This document shows, in pieces, positions 10,575-23,571 of a stretch of DNA of 64,000 nt. A model generated the notes under the pieces. It worked only from the letters and a program-made list of their open reading frames with translations. It was not told the DNA's origin and searched no databases. A program made the translations under genes and the position numbers. The DNA is from Terriglobia bacterium (GTDB lineage Bacteria > Acidobacteriota > Terriglobia > Terriglobales > Acidobacteriaceae): contig JAIQGK010000003.1 of the NCBI GenBank assembly GCA_020072645.1, forward strand, positions 186,001 through 250,000. Direction: 5' to 3'. The stretch's first letter is position 1. The number at the start of each line of letters is the position of its first letter.

Positions 10575-12842
10575 CTATTGCTTTTTGGCGAATCGTACAC
10601 CGCCTGAAATGATCCGAGGCAAAGCGTAGTTCGGCACTGGAGTTGCTGCCACCTGGATTTTTGTGTCGAAGATGTTTGTTGCGCTCGCAAACCAAGTCCA
10701 TCTGCCAATCTGTTTGGAAATTGAAACGCCTGTCACGGAATAGGGCTGAAGAGGAAATTGGTTTAGGTCATCGTCGAATTGCCGGCCGGCTGTGCGAACT
10801 AACGCAACCAAAGTCCATGCCCGTGCCGTGAACGTTCCGGAAAACGTAGCAGTCTGTCCGGGCACCTGAGGTATTTTTTTGCCAACCAACGTTGGGTTCG
10901 CACTAAAACTGCTCACCACAGAATGAACATATTCATAGCCTGTGCGCAGCTGGATATGAGGAAGAATCAACAGGAGATCCAAATCCGATCCTCGGGCGCG
11001 CAAACTGCCCAGGTTCTCCCGCTGGCGCGTTATCAAGGCCGCGGTGATTGCTTGCGTGATATTTGCAACGGGATTTTCGACATTCTGCTGAAAAAACGAG
11101 CCGCTCACCATGACCCGCCGGTGAAGATATCGAATTCCAGTTTCACCGCCATAAAGGTGCTCTGCCCTCAATTGATCATTCGCCAATGTAAGAATGTTGC
11201 CCAGCCTAAAACTCCGGTACAGCTCATTCAAAATTGGAGCTCGAAAGCTCTCATACGCCGACGCAGTAAGCTGCCATTGCGGAGCGAGGTCATAAATCGC
11301 ACCGAGCCGAGGGCTCCAGACTGTTTCGTTATGCGGGTCCAGCAGTGTTTGTGCTGTACTAACATCTGAGATTTTGGCAGTTCGATTAAATCCATCAGTG
11401 TTCAACCACCAGTCGAAACGAAGGCCCGCGGACAGGCGCAGCCGCTTCTTGAACGTCTGCGAAACCTGAGCAAAGACACCCATAAGATTGCTTCGCCCAC
11501 CCGCGGAGACAAGGCTTGTGGGTAAGTTGGCGACAAAGACCGTTTCATCGGATTGTCCATGAATGAAGCGCCCATCGGCGCCAATCAGGAGATTCGCTGA
11601 AGAAATTGGCCTGCTCCAGTTCATGGAAAAGCCAATCTGGTCTGACGAAACGGTCTGCCAGCGCGTCAAAGCCTCGCTGTTTCGGTCGGCGGAAATTGCG
11701 GAAAAACTCTGGTGATAATGTTCTCCTGAACCATAGATTCGCGCGGAAAATATATTATGGCCGACCGTACGATCTATCCCTCCACTGATTTCGCCCAGAT
11801 GCGTACTGTTGATCTGGAGTGCGGTGCCGTTATTGCGCTGTTCTGAAAACAGCGAGCCGCTGATGAATGCATTATCTGCCCCGGCAAGGCTGCGCTGCAC
11901 CAGAACGCGGCCATTACTGAATTGGAGCGTGGCTGGAGTATCGATTATTCCGCGGTCTTCAGCCGCGACCACAAATGCACCATCATTACCGAAATTCTCG
12001 CCGTCGGCGGTAATCGTCCATTTGGTGAACTGGCGTGATATTTGTCCTTGTACATCGTGCCCATTCAAAGAATCGCCTGCCGACTCAAAGCTGCCAAGAC
12101 TGTTGGGAGTCCGCGTCACAAGATCTACTACACCGCTGAAGGCATCGCTGCCAAAAAGAGCCGATCCTCCACCTCGTAACACCTCCGCGCGATCCAGTGT
12201 GATGCGCGGTACTCGGTCCCAGAACACCCATCCGCCAAAAGGGTCATTCAACGGAACCCCATCTTCAAGCACCAGCAGCCTGCTTGCGCCGCTGCCGCCT
12301 ACTCCCCTTGCCGATGCACCCTGAGTCGTAGGATTCGCGGTGAGGCTGTTGTTGCGGCGGAAAAGTGTAAAGCCCGGTACCTGGCGCAATGCATCGTCCA
12401 GGGTTACAGCCGAGCGACTATTGAGTTCCGCGGATGTGAGCACAGCAACATTCGCGGCGGTTTGGTCCAGGCGTGTGGCAGCGCGCTCAGCCGTGACCAC
12501 GATTTGCTCAGCAACAGGCGCTGGCTTGAGCGTAACCAATAGTGGTGAAGCTGAGTCGCTCCATTCCACGGTAGAAGGCGAGAACCCAGGCGCTGAAATG
12601 CGGAGTGTTCCCGAACCAGCGGGCGACTGAATAAAAAAGTTTCCGGCGCTATCAGCCATCGTGTGGTAATTCTGGTTTTGCGATAAAAGCTGCACTTGCG
12701 CGCCGGCGATTACCGCTCCAGATTCATCCAGCACTCGCCCGCGCAGTTCAGCAGCATGGGCGACAGTGCAGTACAAACAGAATGCGATGAGCACTTTAAT
12801 GGAGCGTGTAAAGATAAGCGGCGACGTCTTTGCTGTCTTCAT
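10575..12842 (-). CDS. TonB-dependent outer-membrane receptor with N-terminal carboxypeptidase-regulatory-like domain
   Basis: 755 residues: signal peptide (1-30, ending AHA), a beta-sandwich CarboxypepD_reg-like domain (about 32-105), a TonB-box-like EQIVVTAE (112-119), a plug domain (LDDALRQVPGFTLFRRN, LEDGVPLNDPFGGWV, EVLRGGGSALFGSDAFSGVVD), then a beta-barrel ending in a terminal Gly/Val/Arg-Phe strand. It imports a ligand across the outer membrane using TonB energy. Its start codon lies 47 nt inside the preceding cytochrome c gene, so it is almost certainly the last gene of the PQQ-dehydrogenase/oxidase operon. That context suggests the ligand is PQQ, a lanthanide chelate or copper chelate (inference). 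Ligand cannot be read from sequence. Confidence 0.9.
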   Translation of the reverse strand: MKTAKTSPLIFTRSIKVLIAFCLYCTVAHAAELRGRVLDESGAVIAGAQVQLLSQNQNYHTMADSAGNFFIQSPAGSGTLRISAPGFSPSTVEWSDSASPLLVTLKPAPVAEQIVVTAERAATRLDQTAANVAVLTSAELNSRSAVTLDDALRQVPGFTLFRRNNSLTANPTTQGASARGVGGSGASRLLVLEDGVPLNDPFGGWVFWDRVPRITLDRAEVLRGGGSALFGSDAFSGVVDLVTRTPNSLGSFESAGDSLNGHDVQGQISRQFTKWTITADGENFGNDGAFVVAAEDRGIIDTPATLQFSNGRVLVQRSLAGADNAFISGSLFSEQRNNGTALQINSTHLGEISGGIDRTVGHNIFSARIYGSGEHYHQSFSAISADRNSEALTRWQTVSSDQIGFSMNWSRPISSANLLIGADGRFIHGQSDETVFVANLPTSLVSAGGRSNLMGVFAQVSQTFKKRLRLSAGLRFDWWLNTDGFNRTAKISDVSTAQTLLDPHNETVWSPRLGAIYDLAPQWQLTASAYESFRAPILNELYRSFRLGNILTLANDQLRAEHLYGGETGIRYLHRRVMVSGSFFQQNVENPVANITQAITAALITRQRENLGSLRARGSDLDLLLILPHIQLRTGYEYVHSVVSSFSANPTLVGKKIPQVPGQTATFSGTFTARAWTLVALVRTAGRQFDDDLNQFPLQPYSVTGVSISKQIGRWTWFASATNIFDTKIQVAATPVPNYALPRIISGGVRFAKKQ

Positions 12843-13203
12843 CAGTCACCCCCATTTCCGGCATCGCCGTGTGCGGCTCAATTTCATGCGGTTGCTTGAT
12901 CCAGTGACGGAGATTTTCCGGCGTGTTAGGTGCCTCCCCGGCGATATAGACCCGCAGAGCGAAAGCGTTCAGCGGCGGTCCCACTTTTCCGTTAGCTTCT
13001 GCAATACCGGGGATGGTGTGGCAGGTGGTGCAACCATAAAACCGGATCTTGTCTTTTCCTCGATGAGGATCGCCTCCAGTCGCGCGTATAGCTGCCTTGA
13101 TATCGCTGGCTCGCTGGACTTCATTGCGGCTGTATCCAACCAGCAGAACAGCCACAATGACAACAAAGACAATCAGGGACAAAGTTGCCCAGGGCTTATG
13201 CAT
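12796..13203 (-). CDS. Small membrane-anchored monohaem cytochrome c
   Basis: 135 residues: an N-terminal hydrophobic anchor (about 7-23), then one haem-binding CTTCH (57-61) in FYGCTTCHTIPG, and a C-terminal MPEMGVTDEDSKDVAAYLYTLH containing the distal Met ligand. It overlaps ctaG by 8 nt (ATGCATAA) upstream and the TonB receptor by 47 nt downstream. In context it could donate electrons to, or be an extra subunit of, the caa3 oxidase encoded just upstream. Confidence 0.88.
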   Translation of the reverse strand: MHKPWATLSLIVFVVIVAVLLVGYSRNEVQRASDIKAAIRATGGDPHRGKDKIRFYGCTTCHTIPGIAEANGKVGPPLNAFALRVYIAGEAPNTPENLRHWIKQPHEIEPHTAMPEMGVTDEDSKDVAAYLYTLH

Positions 13204-14140
13204 CCGGCCCTCCCTGGCGCAGTGGCACCCTCAGGAGATCGCTGGTCCGTGTGTAGAGAAGCCTCTGATCAGATTCCCGCAGCCATCCGGCAAAAAGCCA
13301 CAATGCAATTACGATGTACACCACGCCGGCAGGCACCCACATAATCAGACCGCCCAGTTGCTGGTCCTGCAGCGCACTCAATCCCCATGCAGCGGTGTGC
13401 CCGACGTAAGCCGGATACCACAATTTTGAAGTACAGGTGAGCAACGCACCCAGCACGCTGGTGTGAACTGCCGTAGTAAAGACATAGACAACCGCCGCTC
13501 CGTATGTCATCCGCTCGCCACGGCCATGCAAGAGAGTCCACCAGAACAACAGCGCCGTTCCCAAAAAAGTAATGTGTTGCGCCGCATGCACCAGCTCATT
13601 CTCAAGAGTCGCCTGGTACAGAAAAGGAATGTGCCAGAGCCAGACGCTGATGCCGTGAATGATCCATGCAGAGAACGGGCTGGAAACAGTTTTCCATGTT
13701 CGCTCAATCACGGGCTGCTTCAATGCTTTTCCCAGCTTGATGCGGAACGAAACGGGAAAGGCCCACAGCATCGGAGTTCCCGGCTGTCCCATGACCAACA
13801 GCGGAGCTGCAACAAGCATAAGCAGCTCATGTTGCGTCATATGCGCGGAAAATAACTCCGATCCCAATCTGTGAAGAGGTGAAAGCAACGTCAAAGCCAG
13901 TGCGGCTATTCCAGCGATAAAGCCGGTAATCTGCCATTTTGGTACGCTGGTTCGAATTCGCCGCAATCCCATTAGATAAAGAGTTAACGTGAGCAGCAGG
14001 CTGGCGATCACCCACGGCTCCCAGCTCCAAGCCCGCCATAAATTAGCGCGAGTAACCGGACTTTGGTTCTCATGAGCAAAAGCCAGCGTCGGAACCAGCA
14101 GAAGGCTCGTCGCAAGCCGGCATGTATAGCGAAGCTTCAT
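13196..14140 (-). CDS. ctaG: Cytochrome c oxidase assembly factor CtaG (caa3 type)
   Basis: About 314 residues: signal-like N-terminus, then about seven membrane segments with the family markers HMTQHELLMLVAAPLLVMG, HGISVWLWHIPFLYQ and HAAQHITFLGTALLFWW. The conserved histidines are thought to serve copper delivery to the CuB or CuA site. ATG 14140 overlaps the stop of the previous gene in an ATGA arrangement. An in-frame ATG at 14164 is less likely. It is embedded in a caa3 oxidase operon, as in Bacillus-type caa3 loci. Confidence 0.9.
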   Translation of the reverse strand: MKLRYTCRLATSLLLVPTLAFAHENQSPVTRANLWRAWSWEPWVIASLLLTLTLYLMGLRRIRTSVPKWQITGFIAGIAALALTLLSPLHRLGSELFSAHMTQHELLMLVAAPLLVMGQPGTPMLWAFPVSFRIKLGKALKQPVIERTWKTVSSPFSAWIIHGISVWLWHIPFLYQATLENELVHAAQHITFLGTALLFWWTLLHGRGERMTYGAAVVYVFTTAVHTSVLGALLTCTSKLWYPAYVGHTAAWGLSALQDQQLGGLIMWVPAGVVYIVIALWLFAGWLRESDQRLLYTRTSDLLRVPLRQGGPDA

Positions 14141-14532
14141 TGATCGCACGGGCTCATGGCCCATTTTGGAATTGAAAGCGCAATGATCACTAACGTGAAC
14201 GCGATGCTGGCCGCCATTCCGTAAATGGCCATGAAGCGGCTGCGTGATTCCACCATAACGCCGCTAATAATGGCATTTTCCGGTAGCCGACGATAACACC
14301 AGAACGCCGCCGCAAACCCGGTGAGAGCCAGCACAATAGCCAGCACGGTATAAAAATGCAGGAGCCAGTGGTATCCGGTGGAACAGGTGTGCTGCACGAT
14401 GGCATAGCTCAGCACCTCATCCAGCGCGAACCCAATTGGCCCGGCAAAAATTCCCCACCAGAGCGCAAGGGCTCCCGCACCGCTGCGGAACTCCTCCGCT
14501 GGTCCAGCCGTCACTGATTTTTTTATAACCAT
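14137..14532 (-). CDS. Unknown membrane protein inside the oxidase operon
   Basis: 131 residues with four predicted membrane segments (about 22-42, 52-78, 100-124 and adjacent), plus HTCSTGYHWLLHFYT, which contains two His and one Cys near a membrane edge. It overlaps coxIII by 10 nt upstream and ctaG by 4 nt downstream, so it is translationally coupled. Position between subunit III and CtaG is where a small subunit IV or an assembly protein would be expected, but it does not look like the usual CtaF/CoxD. Function not assigned. Confidence 0.7.
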   Translation of the reverse strand: MVIKKSVTAGPAEEFRSGAGALALWWGIFAGPIGFALDEVLSYAIVQHTCSTGYHWLLHFYTVLAIVLALTGFAAAFWCYRRLPENAIISGVMVESRSRFMAIYGMAASIAFTLVIIALSIPKWAMSPCDQ

Positions 14533-15137
14533 CGCGGCGCCCAATAGATCACCAGATACGTGGCGATAAAAGTAATGATGATGAAGTACCAATACAGCGC
14601 ATTTACGCTAACGTCCTCAAATCTGCGCCCCTCAATGGGCGTAAAAAACATGATCACCGTCAATACCAGCGTGTCCAAGGTATCGGTTACAAGATGAAAC
14701 GTGTGGAAGCCCAGCAGCGTCCATGTAACCGAGCCATAGGCGTTTCCGTCCCAGACACAGTTGAGTGACGGAAACTCCAAGGCGCGGATGGCGCAATTCA
14801 CAATGCCAATCAGGGACATGGCTATCAACCCAATGCGCACAGCCCTAAGCTCGCCTTGCTCGGATTTTTTCTTCAGCCACTGGTTGGGGAGCGCGCTGAG
14901 CACCAGGAGCGCGAGGTTAATGCTTCCCCACTTCAGCGCAGGGAGATCAAACCCAGGCGGCCAGTCGGTTTCGCGGGTGCGCAGGAAAAAGTAAGTGGCG
15001 ATGAAGATAGCGAACATGGTGCCTTCAATCGCCATTAATCCCGATTGTCCCCACCAGATAATGGAGCGATGACCGAATACGACGGTCGGAGTGCGGGAGA
15101 CGTCAAGCACGGGACGCGGCTGGTTCAGTGTTCCCAT
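14523..15137 (-). CDS. ctaE: Cytochrome c oxidase subunit III
   Basis: 204 residues, five membrane segments: GLMAIEGTMFAIFIATYFFLR, NLALLVLSALPNQWL, IGLIAMSLIGIVNCAI, LLGFHTFHLVTDTLDTLVL and YWYFIIITFIATYLVIYW. The GxHxxHxxTD motif and the E in the first helix are subunit III hallmarks. It overlaps coxI by 13 nt. Subunit III stabilises the catalytic core and the proton-uptake pathway. Confidence 0.9.
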   Translation of the reverse strand: MGTLNQPRPVLDVSRTPTVVFGHRSIIWWGQSGLMAIEGTMFAIFIATYFFLRTRETDWPPGFDLPALKWGSINLALLVLSALPNQWLKKKSEQGELRAVRIGLIAMSLIGIVNCAIRALEFPSLNCVWDGNAYGSVTWTLLGFHTFHLVTDTLDTLVLTVIMFFTPIEGRRFEDVSVNALYWYFIIITFIATYLVIYWAPRWL

Positions 15138-17056
15138 ATCTCCCTTTCTCTACGGCGCAGGCTCGGTTGCCGCCTGGGCCAATACCAAATCAGAAAGACG
15201 ATGCCGACAACGATAATGGTCGGAAAAAAAGCTTTTGCGGTGAAAATGGTGCTGATAAAAAATCCGCTGGTGGCAATGGCGGCAATGAAAGGCACGGGCG
15301 TGGCTTCAGGAAACTCGTCCCGGTGATCGGGATCAGCATCCATGACCCTGGTCATAAGCACTTGCCGGCAATCTTCGTCCAGTCCTTCCACAATGGGCTG
15401 GTTGGGCAGCGCGTCCCAGAGCGCATCACGGCCATTGACGGTGGGAAGTTCAGCAAAGTTATATACCGGAGGCGGAGAACTGGTGGCCCATTCCAGCGTA
15501 GCCGCGCCCCATGGATTATTTCCGGCAAGCTCACCCTTTTTCTGGTGCCAGAAAAAGTTGGCGATAAAGATCAGAACGGCAGCCGTCATAAAGACCACGC
15601 CGGTGCTTGCCAGCATGTTGAGGCTCCCCCAATGCATGCTGGATGAATACGTATAGACACGGCGTGGCATTCCCCGCAACCCCAGGATGTGCATGGGGAA
15701 GAATGTCATGTTGAAGCCGATAAAGAATAGCCAGAAGTGCCACTTCCCTGCTGCCTCATTAAGCATGCGCCCCGTAATCTTCGGCATCCAGTAGTAGAGC
15801 GCGCCAAACAGCGGAAACACCGCGCCACCGATCAGCACGTAGTGAAAATGCGCCACAATGAAAAAGGTGTCGTGAATCTGCAGATCGACCGGCACTGAGG
15901 CCATGAGCACACCGGTAAGCCCGCCCATTACAAATACAAAGAAAAATGCCAGCGCAAACAGCATGGGCGTCTTCAACACCACTTTGCCAGTCCACATTGT
16001 TACCAGCCAGCAGAACACCTGCGTCCCGCTGGCGATCACCACCATCAGGCTGGCCGCGGTGAAGAAGCTTTCCCCCATCTGCGGCAGCCCGGTGGCAAAC
16101 ATATGATGCACCCAGAGACCGAAGCCAACAAACGCGGTGCCGACCATCGAAAGCAGGATTGCGGTATAGCCGAAGATGCGTCGCCGAGAAAACGTGGAGA
16201 TGATGGTGGAGACAATCCCTGTCCCGGGAATAAAAATGATGTAGACCTCCGGGTGACCAAAAAACCAGAAGAGGTGCTGGTAAAGAATTGCGTCGCCACC
16301 TTCCGCGGGATTGAAAAAATGCGTGTTCACCGTGCGGTCCATCAGCAACATCGTGCTGGAGAGCATTACGGCGGGCATGGCGAAGATCACCATAAAAGCA
16401 ACGATGGCCTGCGCCCACACAAACAGCGGAATCCGGTTCAAGGACATTCCCGGCGCCCGCAATTTGAAAGTCGTGATGATCACTTCTACCGCGACCGCCA
16501 GGGCTGAAAGTTCCGTAAACGTAATCATCTGCGCCCAGATATCAGAGCGTTTTCCCGGAGTGAAGTCCGGGCCTGAAAGTGGAACGTAGGCGAACCAGCC
16601 CGCATCCGGGCCTGTATTGACGAACAGACCGGCGTAAAGCAGTAAGCCGCCCGCAAGATACACGTAATAGCTATAAGCGTTCAGCCGCGGGAAACAAATG
16701 TTCCGGTTTCCTACCATGAGTGGCACCAGGTAAACTGAGAGCGCTTCAAACATCATGGGGACGGCAAACAGGAACATCATGGTGCTGCCGTGCGTGGTGA
16801 ATATCTGGTTGTAAAGATCCGGCCCCAGGAAATGGTTCTCCGGTCGCGACAGTTGGATACGCATCAGCGCGGCCAACACACCGCCCGCAAGAAAAAAGGC
16901 AAATGCCGTAACCATGTAGCGCTTGCCGATGGAGCGATGGTTTACGTGAGTGAACCAACCCCAAAAGCCTGAAGGATCTTTCCAGACTCGCTCCAGGTTC
17001 GCCAGCCGGTTCATATCCGGCGCACTTGCGACCGCTGATTGCTCTGATGGTGTCAC
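15125..17056 (-). CDS. ctaD: Cytochrome c oxidase subunit I (haem-copper catalytic subunit)
   Basis: 643 residues with 12 core membrane segments. Ligands are clear: HGSTMMF (low-spin haem His), GHPEVY at 267-272 (CuB His268, Glu270 and the cross-linking Tyr272), HHMF at 317-318 (CuB pair), and AHFHYV (haem ligands). Glu in the HPEVY helix marks an A-type enzyme with a D-channel glutamate. A short extra N-terminus and a C-terminal soluble tail after the last helix are present. The subunit reduces O2 to water and pumps protons. It lies 10 nt after the subunit II gene. Confidence 0.97.
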   Translation of the reverse strand: MTPSEQSAVASAPDMNRLANLERVWKDPSGFWGWFTHVNHRSIGKRYMVTAFAFFLAGGVLAALMRIQLSRPENHFLGPDLYNQIFTTHGSTMMFLFAVPMMFEALSVYLVPLMVGNRNICFPRLNAYSYYVYLAGGLLLYAGLFVNTGPDAGWFAYVPLSGPDFTPGKRSDIWAQMITFTELSALAVAVEVIITTFKLRAPGMSLNRIPLFVWAQAIVAFMVIFAMPAVMLSSTMLLMDRTVNTHFFNPAEGGDAILYQHLFWFFGHPEVYIIFIPGTGIVSTIISTFSRRRIFGYTAILLSMVGTAFVGFGLWVHHMFATGLPQMGESFFTAASLMVVIASGTQVFCWLVTMWTGKVVLKTPMLFALAFFFVFVMGGLTGVLMASVPVDLQIHDTFFIVAHFHYVLIGGAVFPLFGALYYWMPKITGRMLNEAAGKWHFWLFFIGFNMTFFPMHILGLRGMPRRVYTYSSSMHWGSLNMLASTGVVFMTAAVLIFIANFFWHQKKGELAGNNPWGAATLEWATSSPPPVYNFAELPTVNGRDALWDALPNQPIVEGLDEDCRQVLMTRVMDADPDHRDEFPEATPVPFIAAIATSGFFISTIFTAKAFFPTIIVVGIVFLIWYWPRRQPSLRRREREIWEH

Positions 17057-17066
17057 TACGTTCTCC

Positions 17067-18095
17067 TCATTTCAGTGTCTCCAAATATTCGAGCAGAGCA
17101 TTCAGGTCGTCAGGCTTCAGTGGATTGGGAGGCATCTTGTTGCCCGGTTTGATCGACTGCGAATCCAGTATCCATCCGGCAAGATTGCCGCGATTGTTCG
17201 GCAGAGTGCCAGCTGCAATGGTCATACGGCTGGCGATATGGGTAAGGTCCGGCCCAAGCTTCCCACCCGATCCGTTGCCGCGAACGGTGTGACACATAAC
17301 GCATGTGTGCGTAAGAAACACCTGCTCTCCTTGTTTGGCGACCTGGTCAGATGGCGATGCTGGGGTGCTCACCTGTTGTGCCAGCCACGCGTTGAACTTC
17401 TCCAATGGTTCTGCGACTACAAAGAAAGCCATATGCGCGTGCTGGTGGCCGCAGAATTCAGCGCACTGCCCGCGATATGTACCAGGCTGGTCGGCCTGGA
17501 GCCACACCGCATTCTGATATCCAGGAATCAGATCGCGCTTGCCATGAAGATTCGGGGCCCAAAAGCTGTGAATCACGTCTACAGAAGATGTCTTGATCAC
17601 CACGGGCTGCCCTACGGGAACATGAATCTCATTCGCCGTGACAACTGTTTGGTCAGCTTGTGTTGCTTCATAGCGAACCTCCCACCACCACTGGTGGCCA
17701 ATAACGTCAATGGTGACCGGATTTTTCGAGCTAAGGTTCGCGATGGCGTGTCCGGTGCGTACACTTGCCGTGAGCATTACAAACAGCAGCACAACGGTTA
17801 GACCAATGGCCCACGCGACGACCACGGTCATGCGGCGGTCAGCCTCCATATTTACCTGTGGCGGAATTTCCTGCACGGATTGCTTTGTGCGAGAGCGGAG
17901 AACCGCTGTGCCAAACCACCCCAGTACCACCAGGTAAACCGCGACTATGATCGAAAACATCAGCCACCACAGCCGCTCAATGCGTGCTGCCTGCAGGCCC
18001 TTGGAATCCAGCGCGCTCTGGTTTCCGTGGCAGGAAACCAGACACGCCAGCCCGCAGCAAAGCGCAACCAGCCAGAATGAAGATCGGCGCTTCAT
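17067..18095 (-). CDS. ctaC: Cytochrome c oxidase subunit II fused to cytochrome c (caa3 type)
   Basis: 342 residues: lipobox-like LACLVSC (Cys22), two membrane helices (about 42-66 and 92-112), then the cupredoxin domain with CuA ligands His176, Cys211, Cys215, His219 and Met222 (CAEFCGHQHAHM). A C-terminal cytochrome c domain carries CVMCH (265-269) and a distal Met in NKMPPNPLK. The covalently attached cytochrome defines a caa3 oxidase, which takes electrons from soluble or lipoprotein cytochrome c. It starts within the ATGA stop of the upstream cytochrome gene. Confidence 0.96.
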   Translation of the reverse strand: MKRRSSFWLVALCCGLACLVSCHGNQSALDSKGLQAARIERLWWLMFSIIVAVYLVVLGWFGTAVLRSRTKQSVQEIPPQVNMEADRRMTVVVAWAIGLTVVLLFVMLTASVRTGHAIANLSSKNPVTIDVIGHQWWWEVRYEATQADQTVVTANEIHVPVGQPVVIKTSSVDVIHSFWAPNLHGKRDLIPGYQNAVWLQADQPGTYRGQCAEFCGHQHAHMAFFVVAEPLEKFNAWLAQQVSTPASPSDQVAKQGEQVFLTHTCVMCHTVRGNGSGGKLGPDLTHIASRMTIAAGTLPNNRGNLAGWILDSQSIKPGNKMPPNPLKPDDLNALLEYLETLK

Positions 18096-18640
18096 TTTTC
18101 TTTTTGCCCTGGTGGCACGTTAGTTTGCGGCTGATGTTCTTTCGGCGTTGAAGCTTCCGGCCGCTTGGTGTACATGTGATCTTCCCGCCCGGGAGAAACA
18201 TCCTTAGGCAACTGGCCGCTTATGGCTCGCACGTAGGCCACAATCTCCCAAATTTGTGATTCCGGAATCTTGCCGCGGAAAGACGGCATCCCATTCGGGC
18301 GTCCTTCCACAATCGTTTCGTAGATGTTCTGCGGCTCGCTTCCGTAGATCCACTTGGCATCGAGCAAAGGCGGTCCTATCCCGCCACCACCATGCGCGTG
18401 GCAACCAACGCAGTTGTACATCTCATAAAGCTGCTTCCCCTGGCTCACGGAATAGGCGCTGTCTTCATAAGGATTGGCGTTAGGCTTGCGATCAGCGGAG
18501 TGTCCCGGAGCAATGTCACTCATCTGCACGCCTTCGCCTGTCTCATTCGAAGGTGTAGCTTCGCGGAAGTTGCGCTGCTCTCGCGCGCATCCGGCCAGCA
18601 GCAGCGCGGCTAATGCCAAAATGTGCCGCACCTTGTTCAT
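18092..18640 (-). CDS. Lipoprotein monohaem cytochrome c, XoxG-like by position
   Basis: 182 residues: lipobox LLAGC (Cys18), a flexible polar region, one haem site CVGCH (77-81) followed by AHGGGGIGPPLLD, distal Met in GRPNGMPSFRG, and a Pro/Lys-rich tail. It overlaps the substrate-binding-protein gene and ctaC by 4 nt each. Its position next to the PQQ dehydrogenase and the XoxJ-like gene matches the electron acceptor XoxG/cytochrome cL of methanol dehydrogenases, here between the dehydrogenase and the oxidase. Specificity is inferred. Confidence 0.85.
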   Translation of the reverse strand: MNKVRHILALAALLLAGCAREQRNFREATPSNETGEGVQMSDIAPGHSADRKPNANPYEDSAYSVSQGKQLYEMYNCVGCHAHGGGGIGPPLLDAKWIYGSEPQNIYETIVEGRPNGMPSFRGKIPESQIWEIVAYVRAISGQLPKDVSPGREDHMYTKRPEASTPKEHQPQTNVPPGQKEK

Positions 18641-19437
18641 TTCAGCCTCGCCTGCGTCGTGGCAGTCTGAAATTCTGGCACGGAGTACGTGCGAAGAATT
18701 CGCTCAATCTGTGCATGCTTCTTCAGCAGAGCGCGATCCAATTGGTCTTTAAGTTCGCGATCTGACTTGCGTACAGCGACGGCCATTGCGAAGCGAAATG
18801 GAAGCGCTGGTGGATCGAGTTCAGGGTTTACGGGACGCAGATCAAGAGCAACTCGCTGCCGGGCCGCATAGTAACCGGCAAGAGGACCCCATACGATAGC
18901 GACGTCGATTTTGCCCCGAGCCACAGCGCGAATAATTTCCTGGCTCTCGTCGCCGGCAACATCGAATCCCACGATATTCTGCGTGAGCTGGCGGCGGGAA
19001 AGCGCGCGAGCCGGCGGCGCGTAATCATCTTCGAGCACCTGGACACCAATTTTCATTTTGCGCAGGCGTGGATCGTCGAATGAATTCAGGTTGAGATGGC
19101 GATCTTTCCGCGTGACAAAAACGTAGCTGGAGCTGTAGTAAGGGCTTGTGGTAAGCACCGGACGAAACCGTACCGGCACACCTACCAGCACGTCGCAAAC
19201 GCCTTTATTCAGGTTTTCCCGTACAAATCCGCGGCCCGCGCGCTGCCACACAAATTCAAGCTTGCGTCCCAGATCACGGGCCAGCAATTCAGCGATCCTG
19301 TTATCAAACCCTTGCCCCTGTCGATTCGAGAAAGGCAAATTGTCCGGATCAGCACACACCTTCAGCGCCGGCGAAGCTGCGGCAAGCGATGAAGCTGCAA
19401 GTATCACGCAGCACAATTTAAGGAAGCGCAAAAACAT
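18637..19437 (-). CDS. Quinoprotein-dehydrogenase-associated periplasmic binding protein (XoxJ/MxaJ-like)
   Basis: 266 residues: signal peptide (1-22) and a type 2 periplasmic-binding fold starting LKVCADPDNLPFSNRQGQGF. Other markers are GVCDVLVGVP, SSYVFVTRK, KIGVQVLEDDYAPPARAL and VDVAIVWGPLAGYYA. This is the pattern of the TIGR03871 family found beside PQQ dehydrogenases, where XoxJ/MxaJ is thought to help activate or mature the dehydrogenase rather than feed an ABC transporter. No ABC genes are nearby, consistent with that. Overlaps the dehydrogenase gene by 20 nt. Confidence 0.9.
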   Translation of the reverse strand: MFLRFLKLCCVILAASSLAAASPALKVCADPDNLPFSNRQGQGFDNRIAELLARDLGRKLEFVWQRAGRGFVRENLNKGVCDVLVGVPVRFRPVLTTSPYYSSSYVFVTRKDRHLNLNSFDDPRLRKMKIGVQVLEDDYAPPARALSRRQLTQNIVGFDVAGDESQEIIRAVARGKIDVAIVWGPLAGYYAARQRVALDLRPVNPELDPPALPFRFAMAVAVRKSDRELKDQLDRALLKKHAQIERILRTYSVPEFQTATTQARLK

Positions 19438-21295
19438 ACAACTGGCCTCCTTTGCTGGTGTATTTAGGAAGCTCTTTCATAGCGCTCACGAATCCCAGCG
19501 CAGCTGTAGGATCGCGTGCATCCAATCCCCCGGAAACAATTGCTCCTGCCCAACCTCCTACCCCGGAGAGAACGGCTACATATTGCTTGCCATCGGGACC
19601 TTTATACGTAACCGGCTGGCCGATGATTCCCGATCCGGTCTTGAATTGCCAGAGTTCATCGCCTGTCTTGGCATTAACGGCTTTAAAGTAGCCGTCCATG
19701 GTGCCAAAGAAAACCACATCGCCAGCTGTAGCCAGCGCGCCGCTCCAGACCGGGAAACGGTCTTTGATTTTCCAAACCGCTTTGCCATTGACCGGATCCC
19801 ATGCCGTGAACTCGCCGCCGTGTCCTCCCGGCCCGGCAAACATTTTTACATTCGCTCCTACGTATGGAGTTCCCGCGATGTAACTGACGGAAACATCCTC
19901 CTCGTCCTCACAGAGATTGTTGTGCGGCAGGTACAGCAGGCCTGTTCTGGGAGAAAATGCGGATGGTTGCCAATCCTTGGCGCCGGGTGCGCTTGGACAT
20001 ATTTCACGCGTTACTGATCCAAACCGGGGCTTCTTTTCATCGTTGTATTGCAGCAGCCCGGATTTCAAGTCCACGCCTTTGCTGGTGTTTACGTAAGCAA
20101 AAGGGCTGGCGGAAAGCGGCTGCCCGGTAGCACGGTCAAGCACGTAGATATAACCGTTTCGGTCCGGGTGAACGATAACCTTGCGCTGCTGCCCGTTGAT
20201 GGGCAGTTCCAGCAGCAGGTTTTCATTCACGCCATCGTAGTCATAAAGGTCGTGCCGGCTGTACTGGTAATACCAGATTGCTTCACCGGTATCCGCATCG
20301 CGTGCAAAAATGCCTGCGGTCCATTTGTTGTCGCCAGGACGCTCATCGGAATTCCACGGACCCGGGTTGGCAGTGCCGTAAAATACCAAATTCGTTTCAG
20401 GATCATAGGAGATCCATCCCCACACCGTGCCACCGCCGATTTTCCATGCATCTGGCGGCCAGGTCTTCACTCCCAGGTCTTGTCCTTTATCGGAACTGTA
20501 GAAAGGTTTAAATCGCGGACCGATGAGCACATCTTTGTCCGGACCCGTGCTGTAAGCGCGCCATGCAATCTTTCCGCTGTGTGCGTCCACCGCCGTGAGC
20601 CAGCCTCGAACTCCGAATTCCCCGCCGCTGTTGCCCACCAGCACTTTGTCTTTCACCACGAGCGGAGCCATCGTGATGGTCTCGCCCTTGGTAATGTCGC
20701 CCAGCTTCGTCTTGTAAACTTCCTTGCCGGTTGTCGCATTCACGGCAACGGTGAAACCATCGAGCGTGTTGTAGTAGATATTTCCGAATGCGTAAGATCC
20801 GCCGCGATTGACCCAATCACAACAAGCTACGCCCTTGGCGGAAGGCGAGGGATCGGGGTTGTACTGCCATTTGATAGCGCCGGTTTTCGCATCGAGCGCG
20901 AATAAAGTATTTGGCCAAGGAGTGATGATATAGAGCGTCCCGTTTACATAGAGCGGCGCTGCTTCATGGCCGCGATCCATACCGGTCGAAAATGTCCAGG
21001 CTACTTTTAGTTGCTTTGCATTGTTGACATTGATTTGATCCAACGAACTATAGCGAGTGGAAGCATAGTCCTTTGCCGGACGGACCCATTGGCCGTCATC
21101 AGGCTCCATTTTTCCTGCATACACCGGGGCCGAGTAGCTGGACTCCGTTGCAGGAGGTTGCGTTCCGGCAGCACGGCTCTTGGAGTTTCCGCATCCGGAT
21201 AAAACACACGCCACCACCGCCGTGGCTGCGATTAACCAGCAACGTGGGGTCCCGGATGTTCCTGCTTTTCTATCTTTGTAAAACAACTCTTGCAT
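19418..21295 (-). CDS. PQQ-dependent alcohol dehydrogenase, lipoprotein, with lanthanide-type Asp pair (XoxF-like)
   Basis: 625 residues from ATG 21295 (TTG 21322 would add nine). A lipobox VLSGC makes Cys35 the lipid anchor, unusual for soluble MxaF/XoxF. The eight-bladed propeller has repeated W-motifs, the adjacent-cysteine ring GVACCDW (158-159), the metal-site Glu in GGEFGVRG (226) and Asn in TANPGPWN (310), and HDLYDYDGVNE with Asp352 and Asp354. Ca-dependent enzymes have Ala at the second position of the DxD pair; Asp there is the established mark of lanthanide-dependent enzymes. It oxidises primary alcohols in the periplasm. First gene of the ten-gene respiratory operon. Confidence 0.93.
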   Translation of the reverse strand: MQELFYKDRKAGTSGTPRCWLIAATAVVACVLSGCGNSKSRAAGTQPPATESSYSAPVYAGKMEPDDGQWVRPAKDYASTRYSSLDQINVNNAKQLKVAWTFSTGMDRGHEAAPLYVNGTLYIITPWPNTLFALDAKTGAIKWQYNPDPSPSAKGVACCDWVNRGGSYAFGNIYYNTLDGFTVAVNATTGKEVYKTKLGDITKGETITMAPLVVKDKVLVGNSGGEFGVRGWLTAVDAHSGKIAWRAYSTGPDKDVLIGPRFKPFYSSDKGQDLGVKTWPPDAWKIGGGTVWGWISYDPETNLVFYGTANPGPWNSDERPGDNKWTAGIFARDADTGEAIWYYQYSRHDLYDYDGVNENLLLELPINGQQRKVIVHPDRNGYIYVLDRATGQPLSASPFAYVNTSKGVDLKSGLLQYNDEKKPRFGSVTREICPSAPGAKDWQPSAFSPRTGLLYLPHNNLCEDEEDVSVSYIAGTPYVGANVKMFAGPGGHGGEFTAWDPVNGKAVWKIKDRFPVWSGALATAGDVVFFGTMDGYFKAVNAKTGDELWQFKTGSGIIGQPVTYKGPDGKQYVAVLSGVGGWAGAIVSGGLDARDPTAALGFVSAMKELPKYTSKGGQLYVFALP

Positions 21296-21408
21296 GGGCA
21301 ACGAGTAAAACCTTTCAGCCAATTTATGTTGCTCTGCAGATTCGAGGGCATGCGGCCGGAGAACCGGGCAATTAATTCACAATGATGCTTTGAGGTTTAT
21401 TCAAGTTG

Positions 21409-22311
21409 TCAGGCGCTGTGCAGTTCAGGGCGGAAGTGGTCTTCTGCAAATCTATGCATTAGCCTCATATCGTCAGGCTCATTTTTCATATTAAGAAACC
21501 ATGCGCCAAGAAGCGCCAACAGGTCGTGAATGGCCCCTTGCAGCACAATGCCGGCAACCCTTACGTGTGCTTCGGATTCCTGGCGGTTTGCCCGATACGC
21601 TATGTCCATAGCAAGTGGAAGTACGCCGGCGAATGCGGATTGTGGATCATCTTCGTGAAAGTAATAAGTAATGGGAAATTGTGCCAGGTCATTGCGAATC
21701 TTTGTGATGTCTATGGCCAGCGCAATCACCAGCTGCTCGGTTTCCTGCTCAGGGATTGAGCTGATGCCAATCCGTTCCGAGCGATGGGCGTGATAAAGCA
21801 GGCTCAAGCGATGGGCCGCCGAACGACGATACTCAAGGATGGGGTAAATTGACAAAGCCCATGACAGACTCGCGGTAAGAAGAATAAAACCCATCACTGC
21901 CTCGCTTCCCATGGCAAAGCGCAGCCAGCGTGAATTTGTGTTGAAATCGCCGCCCACGGTAATCAGAGATCCCAGTGAGACGTTAACTGCGTCAAGAAAC
22001 GATTGGTGTTGGCGTATGTCCAATCCCGGAGCCATAACAAAGGCAAGCTGCAGGAACGGCCGATAAACAATACCGAAGCCGCCTACGATCAATATGCCCC
22101 ACACGAACACCGTGGCCACAAATGCTAAAGGGCCAGCCAAGCTCAGCCGCGAATGGTTAGCAGGAAACAGGCGACGGAATATATGCCACATTCGGAATGA
22201 AATAAATTCGGCAAGCACCCCACGACCGGAAGGATGAAACAACGTGTGAAACATGTCATGCAGCGCCAAGCTGACGATGAACAAACCGATCACAACTTGT
22301 AAAACAATCAC
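21409..22311 (-). CDS. Ion-channel-like membrane protein with degenerate filter
   Basis: About 300 residues: an N-terminal helix with HDMFHTLFHP, a second around 48-75, a re-entrant-loop-like segment NVSLGSLITVGGDFNT and a further helix, then a long soluble helical C-terminus. The layout (helix, pore loop, helix, cytosolic domain) is that of two-helix K+ channels, but the filter reads TVGGD instead of TVGYGD. GTG 22311 is chosen because AAGGA precedes it by 8 nt; TTG 22317 is the alternative. Not clearly linked to its neighbours. Confidence 0.7.
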   Translation of the reverse strand: MIVLQVVIGLFIVSLALHDMFHTLFHPSGRGVLAEFISFRMWHIFRRLFPANHSRLSLAGPLAFVATVFVWGILIVGGFGIVYRPFLQLAFVMAPGLDIRQHQSFLDAVNVSLGSLITVGGDFNTNSRWLRFAMGSEAVMGFILLTASLSWALSIYPILEYRRSAAHRLSLLYHAHRSERIGISSIPEQETEQLVIALAIDITKIRNDLAQFPITYYFHEDDPQSAFAGVLPLAMDIAYRANRQESEAHVRVAGIVLQGAIHDLLALLGAWFLNMKNEPDDMRLMHRFAEDHFRPELHSA

Positions 22312-22396
22312 AGGCAATTTTCCTTGCGAATTTATGCAACCTGGGCAAGATGGAGAGCAGAGCTGCCTAGATATTGCAAGCCAGGATTATCGGGCG

Positions 22397-23191
22397 TTAT
22401 TTTCCGCTGGTCTTAAATTTCTCAGGCAGTTGCTTGATGATATCGTCGGGTGGCTTGCCGCCCTTGCAAGTGGGATGTCCAAATCCGCTGGCGCTTGCGC
22501 CGTTCTGTATGTCCAGAATCATATTGTCATTCTGGCCCGGCGCCACACCGTAGGGCACATGATCGAACCCAAGTTCATGGCGGACTTTCCACGCCACAAT
22601 GTGGTCAGCGCAGGATGTGTCACCGCTTACTCCTAATCCTCCAACAACTTTTCCTTTTGCGTCATACAGTGCCAGGCCGCCGCCAAACACAACAATGCCG
22701 CCGATCGCCTTGCCGACCATAGGATCATTTGTTTGGCCAAATGCTTCCGGCGGACCCGCAAATGCCGCGAGTTGATTTGCCGAAGCGCTGGTTGTAAGGC
22801 TATAAAGGCTCTGGCCCGGCTGCGAAGGGGTGAATAGATTGGCCGTTGAGAATGCAAAGTTCGGCCCGCTGAGAGCGTTTGCGGTATTGGCCTTTTCGGC
22901 TGCAATCAGCCTGCTTCCCGGCCATTCGGCGGACCGATCAGGTCCGGAAAACACCACTGCACACACAATTCCATCGCGGTTTACCAGTGCCGCCCATCCC
23001 TGGTTTCCCATTCCGCTGTTGGATTCCTTGCCCTGTTTGACCACTGAGGTCAATGCGGTTTTCAATTTCTGATAGTCGGGTACGTTGGAGCATTTGTCAT
23101 TGGTCTTCTGGGCCGCGACACTACACGCAAGCGCGCTAATCACCACAACGTTGAATGCGAATTGGCGAATGAAATGAAGCAACACTCTCAT
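22397..23191 (-). CDS. Secreted haem-binding GlcG/HbpS-family protein
   Basis: 264 residues from ATG 23191, which has AGAGG at -7 and starts a clear signal peptide (MRVLLHFIRQFAFNVVV to CSVAAQ). The rest is a GlcG/HbpS (PF03928-type) domain: GWAALVNRDGIVCAVVFSG, SRLIAAEKANTANAL, GGIVVFGGGLALYDAKGKVVGGLGVSGDTSCADH. Such domains bind haem or corrinoids, or act as chaperone-like accessory proteins. Two neighbouring Cys (DTSC, HPTC) may form a disulfide. An upstream GTG/ATG-extended frame is less likely because it would bury the signal peptide. Confidence 0.85.
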   Translation of the reverse strand: MRVLLHFIRQFAFNVVVISALACSVAAQKTNDKCSNVPDYQKLKTALTSVVKQGKESNSGMGNQGWAALVNRDGIVCAVVFSGPDRSAEWPGSRLIAAEKANTANALSGPNFAFSTANLFTPSQPGQSLYSLTTSASANQLAAFAGPPEAFGQTNDPMVGKAIGGIVVFGGGLALYDAKGKVVGGLGVSGDTSCADHIVAWKVRHELGFDHVPYGVAPGQNDNMILDIQNGASASGFGHPTCKGGKPPDDIIKQLPEKFKTSGK

Positions 23192-23571
23192 CGCAACCTC
23201 TGTTCCCATCACTTCAGTCAGTATGGATTCGCAGCAACGCAGCAGGGTTGACTCGGCATTCCATTCTTGGATTGGCTGCGAATAAAGGAGCGTTTCGGCT
23301 GAAATTCCAGCCGGCATATCCACTCACTCGATATCTTGGCTCGGCCGTTGCCCTGGCGATTGCCTCAACGAGAGGTTACGCAATGCCGTGAATGGATGGA
23401 ACCAGGTGATCCGCAATCTTGCGGAGATGCCGGTCTTCATTTCTGAGTAAATTGCGATCACGGGCAGATGGCATCTGACTCTTTCAGTTCACGCGCCAGA
23501 TTTGCCCTGAGCTGCACGGGGATAGGCTGCACAGAACAGAGAGACTGAGCAGTTCACGAAAACCGCTTTTG
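23192..23571. other. Intergenic region without a gene
   Basis: 380 nt between the GlcG-like gene start and the monooxygenase stop, both on the minus strand. It should hold the GlcG promoter and the monooxygenase terminator. A short stem ATCCGCAA/TTGCGGA lies near 23410-23430. No coding frame is convincing. Confidence 0.4.

What the first reader, a model, noticed from the sequence alone, without database searches (positions are those of the whole stretch)
10575..21295. A ten-gene overlapping operon coupling a PQQ alcohol dehydrogenase to its own caa3 oxidase
Seen: dehydrogenase, XoxJ-like protein, cytochrome c, CoxII-cytochrome, CoxI, CoxIII, unknown membrane protein, CtaG, cytochrome c and TonB receptor all run on one strand. 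Eight of nine junctions overlap (4 to 47 nt) and the other gap is 10 nt. Known: xoxFGJ sets and caa3 sets normally occur separately. Inference: this is a dedicated periplasmic alcohol-to-oxygen chain with its own terminal oxidase and uptake receptor. The tight coupling suggests fixed stoichiometry and a common purpose that I have not seen described as one unit.
Basis: partly seen in the sequence, partly recalled or inferred. Interest (0 to 1): 0.78.

Follow-up and report, generated by a model that had tools for sequence, protein, structure and literature searches.

The report
Methanol-to-oxygen operon with odd oxidase
A bacterium of the Acidobacteriota carries, in one tightly packed operon, a lanthanide-type methanol dehydrogenase together with its own oxygen-reducing enzyme; the gene set is already published and widespread, but its oxidase lacks key amino acids that normally carry protons through such enzymes, which is unexpected and testable.

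Summary
In detail: ten same-strand genes at 10575-21322, eight of nine junctions overlapping. It is a XoxF3-type system: dehydrogenase with all four lanthanide ligands, XoxJ, cytochrome, CoxII-cytochrome, CoxI, CoxIII, a 131-aa membrane protein, CtaG, cytochrome, TonB receptor. The novelty claim fails: this XoxF3+Cox set (PMC10875860) and PQQ dehydrogenases in 'COX operon type a-II' (PMC4013037) are in print. The neighbourhood is not chance: 62 of 69 XoxF3 loci classified have a caa3 set beside xoxF; six of the other seven lie at or near a contig end. The TonB receptor is not core.

New here: the linked CoxI form one lineage without canonical proton-channel residues. The window's arrangement ('type A') has Gln for the K-channel Lys in 46 of 46 and no Asp at the D-channel entry in 45 of 46, with an invariant new helix-IV Glu. 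The other ('type B') keeps the Asp but has Trp for the D-channel Glu in 13 of 13 and no K-channel Lys. Linked CoxII lack the K-channel entry Glu motif in 63 of 63 rows. Redox ligands are intact. I infer a dedicated methanol-to-O2 chain whose oxidase has rerouted, perhaps non-pumping, proton uptake; the proton step is untested.

The parts
19418..21322 (-). xoxF3-type lanthanide-dependent PQQ alcohol (methanol) dehydrogenase, 634 aa from TTG (625 from ATG 21295); N-terminal lipobox LSGC (read by eye)
   Evidence: TIGR03075 656.2 bits; best solved relative XoxF 4mae, E 3.8e-197; ligands E172, N256, D299, D301 of 4mae align with E235, N319, D361, D363 (ligand roles recalled)
18637..19437 (-). XoxJ / MoxJ-like periplasmic protein
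   Evidence: TIGR03871 271.4 bits over cut-off; solved XoxJ 6onp E 5.6e-46
18092..18640 (-). monohaem cytochrome c (XoxG role inferred), lipobox LAGC (by eye)
   Evidence: Cytochrome_CBB3 3.3e-15; MoxG model only 41.8 of 147.8 bits
17067..18095 (-). CoxII fused to cytochrome c (caa3 type), lipobox LVSC (by eye); CuA motif CAEFCGHQHAHM; lacks the ExxWT motif
   Evidence: CoxB over cut-off, COX2 + Cytochrom_C; motifs
15125..17056 (-). CoxI, family A, with a C-terminal extension (COX4-like fusion); V113, N124, E187, E196, E275, Q351
   Evidence: CtaD_CoxA 696.1 bits over cut-off; columns by CyoB numbering; extension; trees
14523..15137 (-). CoxIII, short form, 204 aa
   Evidence: PF00510 26.3 bits (cut 23.8)
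14137..14532 (-). 131-aa membrane protein, three long helices, C50 and C129 invariant in 27 aligned sequences; unnamed family
   Evidence: alignment; AlphaFold2 pLDDT 89.3; no Pfam, NCBIfam or PDB match at threshold; one relative, L116, lacks both Cys
13196..14164 (-). CtaG of the caa3_CtaG kind, CuB assembly factor (start may be 14140)
   Evidence: PF09678 211 bits
12796..13203 (-). small cytochrome c with an N-terminal hydrophobic stretch
   Evidence: PF00034 1.4e-06, 30 bits over cut-off
10575..12842 (-). TonB-dependent receptor; not conserved in related operons, substrate unknown
   Evidence: PF00593, PF07715; PqqU residues not met; widespread
22397..23323 (-). HbpS-like gene upstream on the same strand; relatives lie downstream of the XoxF3 operon in seven other loci
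   Evidence: PF03928 39.9 bits; flank clustering
21409..22317 (-). ion-channel-like membrane protein (by eye) upstream; relatives flank three other XoxF3 loci, there on the opposite strand
   Evidence: no Pfam match; flank clustering

Best explanation
The operon encodes a self-contained periplasmic chain from methanol (or a similar alcohol) to oxygen. XoxF3 (lanthanide + PQQ) oxidises the alcohol and passes electrons to the cytochrome c, then to the cytochrome domain and CuA of CoxII, then haem a and the haem a3-CuB site of CoxI, bypassing the quinone pool and bc1. XoxJ helps XoxF; CtaG loads CuB; the three-helix protein with two conserved cysteines on one side of the membrane probably helps assembly or is a subunit. 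The oxidase is not a standard A-type pump: its lineage lacks the K-channel lysine and the subunit II glutamate motif, and either the D-channel entry aspartate (type A, this window) or the D-channel end glutamate (type B). Protons for water formation must enter by another route, in type A probably via the invariant helix-IV Glu (window E187), and pumping is probably reduced or absent. Shown: genes, order, lineage, residues. Inferred: electron route, substrate, proton route, pumping.
For: Gene identities. Order: of 69 XoxF3 loci, 48 have the set downstream, 1 inverted, 13 upstream; 4 cut by a contig end downstream; 3 none, two of them at or near a contig start. CoxI lineage: type A 48 rows (98% SH-aLRT) and type B 13 rows (99%) each one side of a branch; together with the G060 row 99%. 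In the family, 26 of 300 genomes have this CoxI (E <= 1e-190) and 24 of the 26 have XoxF; the other two lie on contigs too short to reach XoxF. Residues by E. coli CyoB numbering: K362 is Gln in 46 of 46 type A; D135 is N/S/Q in 45 of 46; N124 is replaced in 46 of 46; E198 in 46 of 46; type B has W286 in 13 of 13 and no K362 in 13 of 13. Among 29 other CoxI of these hosts K362 is kept in 23, D135 in 25, and none has E198. ExxWT is absent in 63 of 63 linked CoxII rows and present in the CoxII beside the two other oxidases of this genome. His, Tyr and Arg of the redox sites are intact. D132, E286, K362 and subunit II E101 are described as essential ionizable channel residues whose mutation leads to loss of activity (PMC8239185 passages).
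Against: Residue loss does not prove loss of pumping: B- and C-type oxidases lack the D-channel (PMC8239185); channel variants in archaeal family A are described, and one hypothesis discussed there would need seven K-channel losses (PMC8239418 passages); an H-pathway is proposed to be the pump in all families (PMC12901375, start of abstract only). Losses also occur among the 29 other CoxI: four lack D135 (this genome's own third oxidase has Asn), six lack K362, two (L151 with Glu at 135, L154) lack both, and 14 have Ala at 286 as in A2 types. One CoxII control (L038's second, 28% identity) also lacks ExxWT. Linkage is not absolute: G151 has a type A oxidase with an XoxG-like cytochrome but no XoxF3 beside it, G060 a deep relative without XoxF3, G176 has both on different contigs, G011 and G036 have XoxF3 without this oxidase. 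The host lacks PqqC and PqqE above cut-off, so activity may depend on imported PQQ. No transcript or biochemical data.
Confidence: 0.66

Rival explanations
1. Same dedicated chain, but the oxidase pumps normally: the lost residues are replaced by a rewired D-pathway (T186/E187, often E196, then E275), so only details differ.
For: T197-E198 (CyoB numbering) is invariant in 46 of 46 type A CoxI and Glu there is absent from the 29 other CoxI; E286 is kept in 45 of 46; position 207 is Glu in 19 of 46. G060 shows E198 with D135 still present, as if the new acid came before the loss; its place in the tree is unsure (long branch).
Against: Does not explain type B, which lacks E286 and E198 in 13 of 13, nor the K-channel losses in both.
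Confidence: 0.4
2. The oxidase serves the general respiratory chain and merely sits beside xoxF.
For: G151 has the oxidase without XoxF3 beside it and G176 has them on separate contigs.
Against: 24 of 26 family genomes with this CoxI have XoxF, the other two being on truncated contigs; linkage across phyla in two arrangements; the genome has two other haem-copper oxidases.
Confidence: 0.12
3. The system includes PQQ scavenging: the host cannot make PQQ, and the TonB receptor in the operon imports PQQ (or a lanthanide chelate) by a route unlike PqqU.
For: No PqqC (best 41.5 of 240 bits) or PqqE (best 80.9 of 381.35) over cut-off in a 99% complete genome; 8 of 11 XoxF3 hosts of the phylum sample lack PqqC at E <= 1e-30. 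PMC12124388 found PqqU among Acidobacteria only in Vicinamibacteria (passage).
Against: PqqU signature residues are not met: a gap, Glu and Glu at Y99, R304 and R365, on an uncertain alignment. The receptor family is not XoxF3-specific and is seldom near XoxF3. PqqB and PqqD were not searched.
Confidence: 0.12
4. The CoxI is not an O2 reductase but a NO reductase-like enzyme, which would explain the missing channels.
For: NO reductases lack these channels (recalled).
Against: CuB histidines and the cross-link Tyr are conserved in 46 of 46 type A rows, and CuA ligands in the linked CoxII rows that reach that stretch; it falls among family A oxidases with a CtaG gene.
Confidence: 0.04

Closest known systems
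XoxF3 systems of Acidobacteria and Gemmatimonadetes (Voutsinos et al. 2024, PMC10875860; passages read)
   Same: [quoted passage not shown] TonB, NRAMP and YncE among the genes of its Fig. 5 legend; PQQ synthesis in only 16 of 38 XoxF genomes
   Different: The passages I saw do not discuss proton channels. They liken the small protein to vesicle-mediated transport proteins; my model search gave no PDB match at E <= 0.001. Here the TonB receptor overlaps the last cytochrome gene.
COX operon type a-II (Degli Esposti et al. 2014, PMC4013037; passages read)
   Same: COX1 fused with a COX4-like part, five-helix COX3, often a PQQ dehydrogenase related to MxaF
   Different: Set up on proteobacterial clusters; Acidobacteriota members and channel losses are not in the passages I saw
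A-type (A1) caa3 oxygen reductases
   Same: Active-site and CuA ligands, GHPEVY, CoxII-cytochrome c fusion, CtaG
   Different: Lacks D-channel Asp and two Asn, the K-channel Lys and the subunit II Glu motif
xoxFGJ of methylotrophs
   Same: XoxF, XoxJ, small cytochrome c
   Different: No oxidase in the cluster (recalled in general; xoxF3 of Methylocella tundrae T4 is given as a separate xoxFGJ cluster in a PMC11102522 passage)

Membership tests
Lanthanide-dependent XoxF methanol dehydrogenase | Four metal ligands including the extra Asp (DxD) | tested here: met
   E235, N319, D361, D363 align with E172, N256, D299, D301 of 4mae (ligand roles recalled)
Lanthanide-dependent XoxF methanol dehydrogenase | Activity with lanthanide and methanol | not testable with these tools
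   no biochemistry
XoxF clade 3 system | Conserved cluster XoxF-J-G, CoxII, CoxI, CoxIII, 110-130-aa protein, CtaG, CytC | tested here: met
   against the gene list in PMC10875860
XoxF clade 3 system | Placement of XoxF in clade 3 of a reference tree | not tested
   no named XoxF3 reference sequence was at hand and no XoxF tree was built
COX operon type a-II | COX1 with C-terminal COX4-like extension | tested here: met
   columns W629, W631, P632 filled in 44-46 of 46 type A and 8 of 8 type B, gaps in 27-29 of 29 other CoxI; likeness to COX4 itself not tested
COX operon type a-II | PQQ dehydrogenase in the operon | tested here: met
A1-type haem-copper oxygen reductase | CuB, haem a, haem a3 ligands and cross-link Tyr | tested here: met
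   H106, H284, H333, H334, H419, H421, Y288 in 46 of 46
A1-type haem-copper oxygen reductase | D-channel residues (list in PMC3084760) | tested here: not met
   window: Asp entry and two Asn replaced; Glu, one Asn and Ser kept; the Tyr of the list was not checked
A1-type haem-copper oxygen reductase | K-channel residues (Lys, Thr, Ser, Tyr; same source) | tested here: not met
   window: Lys is Gln, Thr is Ser; Ser and Tyr kept
PqqU PQQ importer (for the TonB receptor) | Y99 (or F/W), R304, R365 | tested here: not met
   gap, Glu, Glu in the alignment with E. coli PqqU, distant and uncertain

The most novel reading that the evidence does not exclude
XoxF3-linked caa3 oxidases are a cross-phylum lineage that gave up both canonical proton channels, in two different ways, while tied to a periplasmic alcohol dehydrogenase: a natural O2-reducing A-family enzyme with little or no pumping, or with protons taken by a new route (even from the periplasmic side), acting as a dedicated electron sink for lanthanide methanol oxidation.
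Probability: 0.4. Interest if true: 0.78.

Novelty: new variant of a known kind. Interest (0 to 1): 0.52.

Why it matters
XoxF3 was the commonest XoxF type in one weathered-granite and soil profile (340 of 411 sequences, PMC10875860 passage), and that paper states that XoxF3 systems had not been studied experimentally. If the private oxidase lacks the standard proton channels, lanthanide methanol oxidation in such soils yields less energy than assumed, and nature has made viable versions of changes described as loss-of-activity mutations in model oxidases. That gives bioenergetics two ready comparisons (type A keeps the Glu and loses the Asp; type B the reverse) for asking how protons reach the O2 site without the D- and K-channels.

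Tried and rejected
TonB receptor as a PQQ importer of the PqqU kind: signature not met and family widespread; kept only as a weak rival. Conserved lipid-anchoring of XoxF: lipoboxes are visible by eye in the window's XoxF, first cytochrome and CoxII, but a crude pattern called 12 of 46 XoxF, 25 of 46 cytochromes and 5 of 46 CoxII in the type A loci, and missed the window's own cytochrome, so no claim is made. Weak CopD hit (E 0.031, 15.1 of 32.1 bits) not used. Sigma-70 promoters and terminators: not above shuffles. PqqB and PqqD were not searched; no XoxF tree was built; CoxI coordinates were not modelled, so the place of E187 rests on alignment with CyoB and on recalled channel geometry.

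Rows left out: ten distant Gemmatimonadetes hits of 54 (L051-L060, 27-31% identity) were not used as XoxF3; L110, L114 and L115 were dropped as the same contigs as L046, L014 and L049; L012 and L020 (cut) and L034 (CoxI in two pieces) had no CoxI of 400 aa and were left out of the tree and counts. L118's downstream CoxI was first labelled type B but groups with the canonical ones and was counted there (29 = 28 + L118). The column first called D-entry was off by one; counts come. Of 37 XoxF places, 16 were not fetched: eight look by coordinates like contigs already held (G314, G341, G331, G375, G360, G392, G376, G439) and eight were left unread (G422:C59, G494, G419, G456, G414, G542, G476, G423). 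In one search, G261 (47% identity) and the 38-46% hits were not counted as XoxF3. Four of the 69 loci are cut downstream (L009, which still shows xoxJ, cytochrome and cox2; L010; L037; L108). L108 (G036) is a sister of L107 (G011), which is a clear absence, so it may be another.

Print searches behind 'not found in print': in an open-licence library only. Degli Esposti 2020 (cited in PMC8239418) was looked up by a recalled DOI and is not held. The mini-review that PMC10875860 cites for cox and ctaG in xoxF3 operons was not looked up.


Full report
What is there. Families and best solved relatives identify them as XoxF (TIGR03075 over cut-off; best solved match XoxF 4mae), XoxJ/MoxJ_2, a monohaem cytochrome c, CoxII with a cytochrome domain, CoxI, CoxIII, an unnamed membrane protein, caa3_CtaG, a small cytochrome c and a TonB receptor. 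The dehydrogenase has all four lanthanide-site residues of 4mae, including the extra Asp (ligand roles recalled). The N-termini of XoxF, the first cytochrome and CoxII carry lipoboxes (LSGC, LAGC, LVSC; read by eye), so in this organism the chain may be membrane-tethered; a crude pattern did not show this to be general.

Is the neighbourhood chance? No. The search for related loci gave 54 loci, 44 of them relatives at 56-77% identity, from Acidobacteriota, Gemmatimonadota and several proteobacterial groups. Of 69 loci classified, window included, 48 have the oxidase set downstream on the same strand (type A; 43 of them with xoxJ, cytochrome, cox2, cox1, cox3 and ctaG all recognised), 1 has it inverted, 13 have an oxidase upstream (type B), 4 are cut by a contig end downstream and 3 show none; of those three, L050 and L106 lie at or near a contig start, and L107 (G011) is a clear absence. 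A hydrophobic ORF in the place of the 131-aa protein was listed in 45 of 45 loci where cox3 and ctaG were both recognised close together. In 27 of these aligned, the only two invariant columns are Cys; L116, not in that alignment, lacks both.

Is the oxidase tied to XoxF? In 300 genomes of the window's family, 26 have this CoxI at E <= 1e-190 and 24 of these also have XoxF at E <= 1e-150; the two others, G351 and G388, hold it on contigs that end 1290 and 1682 bases upstream of coxI, nearer than the 2362 bases to xoxF in the window. In 297 genomes of the phylum, 11 have XoxF3 (55% identity or more) and 11 have CoxI at E <= 1e-165, with 9 in common. Exceptions: G151 has a type A oxidase with an XoxG-like cytochrome but no XoxF3 next to it; G060 has a 44% relative; G011 and G036 have XoxF3 without it; G176 has both, on different contigs.

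Lineage. In a tree of 83 CoxI, all 46 type A rows form one group (100% SH-aLRT), with eight type B rows as its sister (54 rows, 99%), apart from 28 other CoxI of the hosts and L118's canonical one. With nine more rows the type A group (48, 98%), type B group (13, 99%) and the G060 row together have 99% (quick method, no bootstrap; the G060 branch is long and its place unsure; type A there includes G151 and G176). CoxI of both types carries a C-terminal extension that the other CoxI lack, the mark of COX operon type a-II.

Proton channels. Columns were numbered by E. coli CyoB, whose own residues fall as expected, and recounted. Type A (46): K362 is Gln in 46; D135 is Asn 37, Ser 6, Gln 2, Asp 1; N124 is never Asn; N207 is Glu in 19 and Asn in 1; N142 is kept in 40; E286 in 45 (Asp in one); H106, H284, Y288, H333, H334, H419, H421, R481, R482 in 46. 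Position 198 is Glu in 46 of 46 and in none of the 29 others; 197 is Thr in 46 and in one of the 29. Type B (8 in the first tree, 5 fetched later): D135 in 13, E286 is Trp in 13, K362 is Gln 8, Ala 3, Thr 2, and E198 in none. Among the 29 other CoxI: K362 kept in 23, D135 in 25, E286 in 14 (Ala in 14, the A2 kind); two lack both D135 and K362 (L151, with Glu at 135, and L154). The XoxF-free relatives from G151 and G060 also show Gln at 362 and Glu at 198; G060 still has D135, so the change belongs to the oxidase lineage and may have begun apart from the XoxF link. In CoxII the ExxWT motif holding the K-channel entry Glu is absent in 63 of 63 linked rows; it is present in the CoxII beside the two other oxidases of this genome and in the canonical CoxII of L118, but also absent from a second, 28% identical CoxII near L038.

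Reading of this. [quoted passage not shown] Type A here lacks three of the four and type B another three. The redox sites are intact and the lineage is conserved across phyla, so I take these as working enzymes with another proton path. For type A the invariant helix-IV Glu, at the position of CyoB G198, is the obvious candidate (inference). Whether pumping survives cannot be told from sequence: B- and C-type oxidases lack the D-channel (same paper), channel variants of archaeal family A are described in PMC8239418 (passages), and an H-pathway pump is proposed in PMC12901375 (start of abstract only).

What is known. [quoted passage not shown] PMC4013037 (passages) ties PQQ dehydrogenases to COX operon type a-II. 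So the unit is not new. Searches for a link between XoxF or methanol dehydrogenase and missing proton channels listed no paper on it (listings and a few passages seen), within the limits of the open library.

PQQ and the receptor. The genome (99.14% complete) has no PqqC or PqqE above cut-off; in the phylum sample 14 of 297 genomes have PqqC at E <= 1e-30, including 3 of the 11 XoxF3 hosts. The cell probably imports PQQ. The operon's TonB receptor lacks the PqqU residues named in PMC12124388, and its relatives occur in at least 82 of 297 genomes, so its cargo is open.

Verdict. Observation confirmed; interpretation partly right; unit already published; the channel-deficient oxidase lineage is the part worth following.

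Noticed in passing
window 22397-23323 and 21409-22317 (-): An HbpS-like gene and an ion-channel-like gene lie just upstream of xoxF on the same strand. Relatives of the first follow the XoxF3 operon in seven other loci; relatives of the second flank three others on the opposite strand. The working unit may be larger than ten genes.
   Followed up: partly
G000 whole genome; L061: No PqqC or PqqE above cut-off; the only PqqC-like hit is a lone protein beside what looks by eye like hslU. The host looks like a PQQ scavenger.
   Followed up: partly
L099, L100 and others, downstream of ctaG: Genes that look by eye like YncE and NRAMP (no family call made) follow the XoxF3 operon in some loci, as in print; in L100 a TonB receptor follows the YncE-like gene, recalling the neighbouring pqqU and yncE of E. 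coli.
   Followed up: no
G462, G486: These genomes carry both arrangements: a type A XoxF3 operon and a second XoxF (54-55% identity) with a type B oxidase upstream.
   Followed up: partly
G000:C7:170950-172533 (L150): A third haem-copper oxidase of this genome also has Asn at the D-channel entry but keeps the K-channel Lys.
   Followed up: no
window 14137-14532 (-): The three-helix protein between coxIII and ctaG has two Cys invariant in 27 relatives, which the predicted helices put on the same side of the membrane (outward side assumed); possible copper or disulphide role in oxidase assembly. L116 lacks both.
   Followed up: partly
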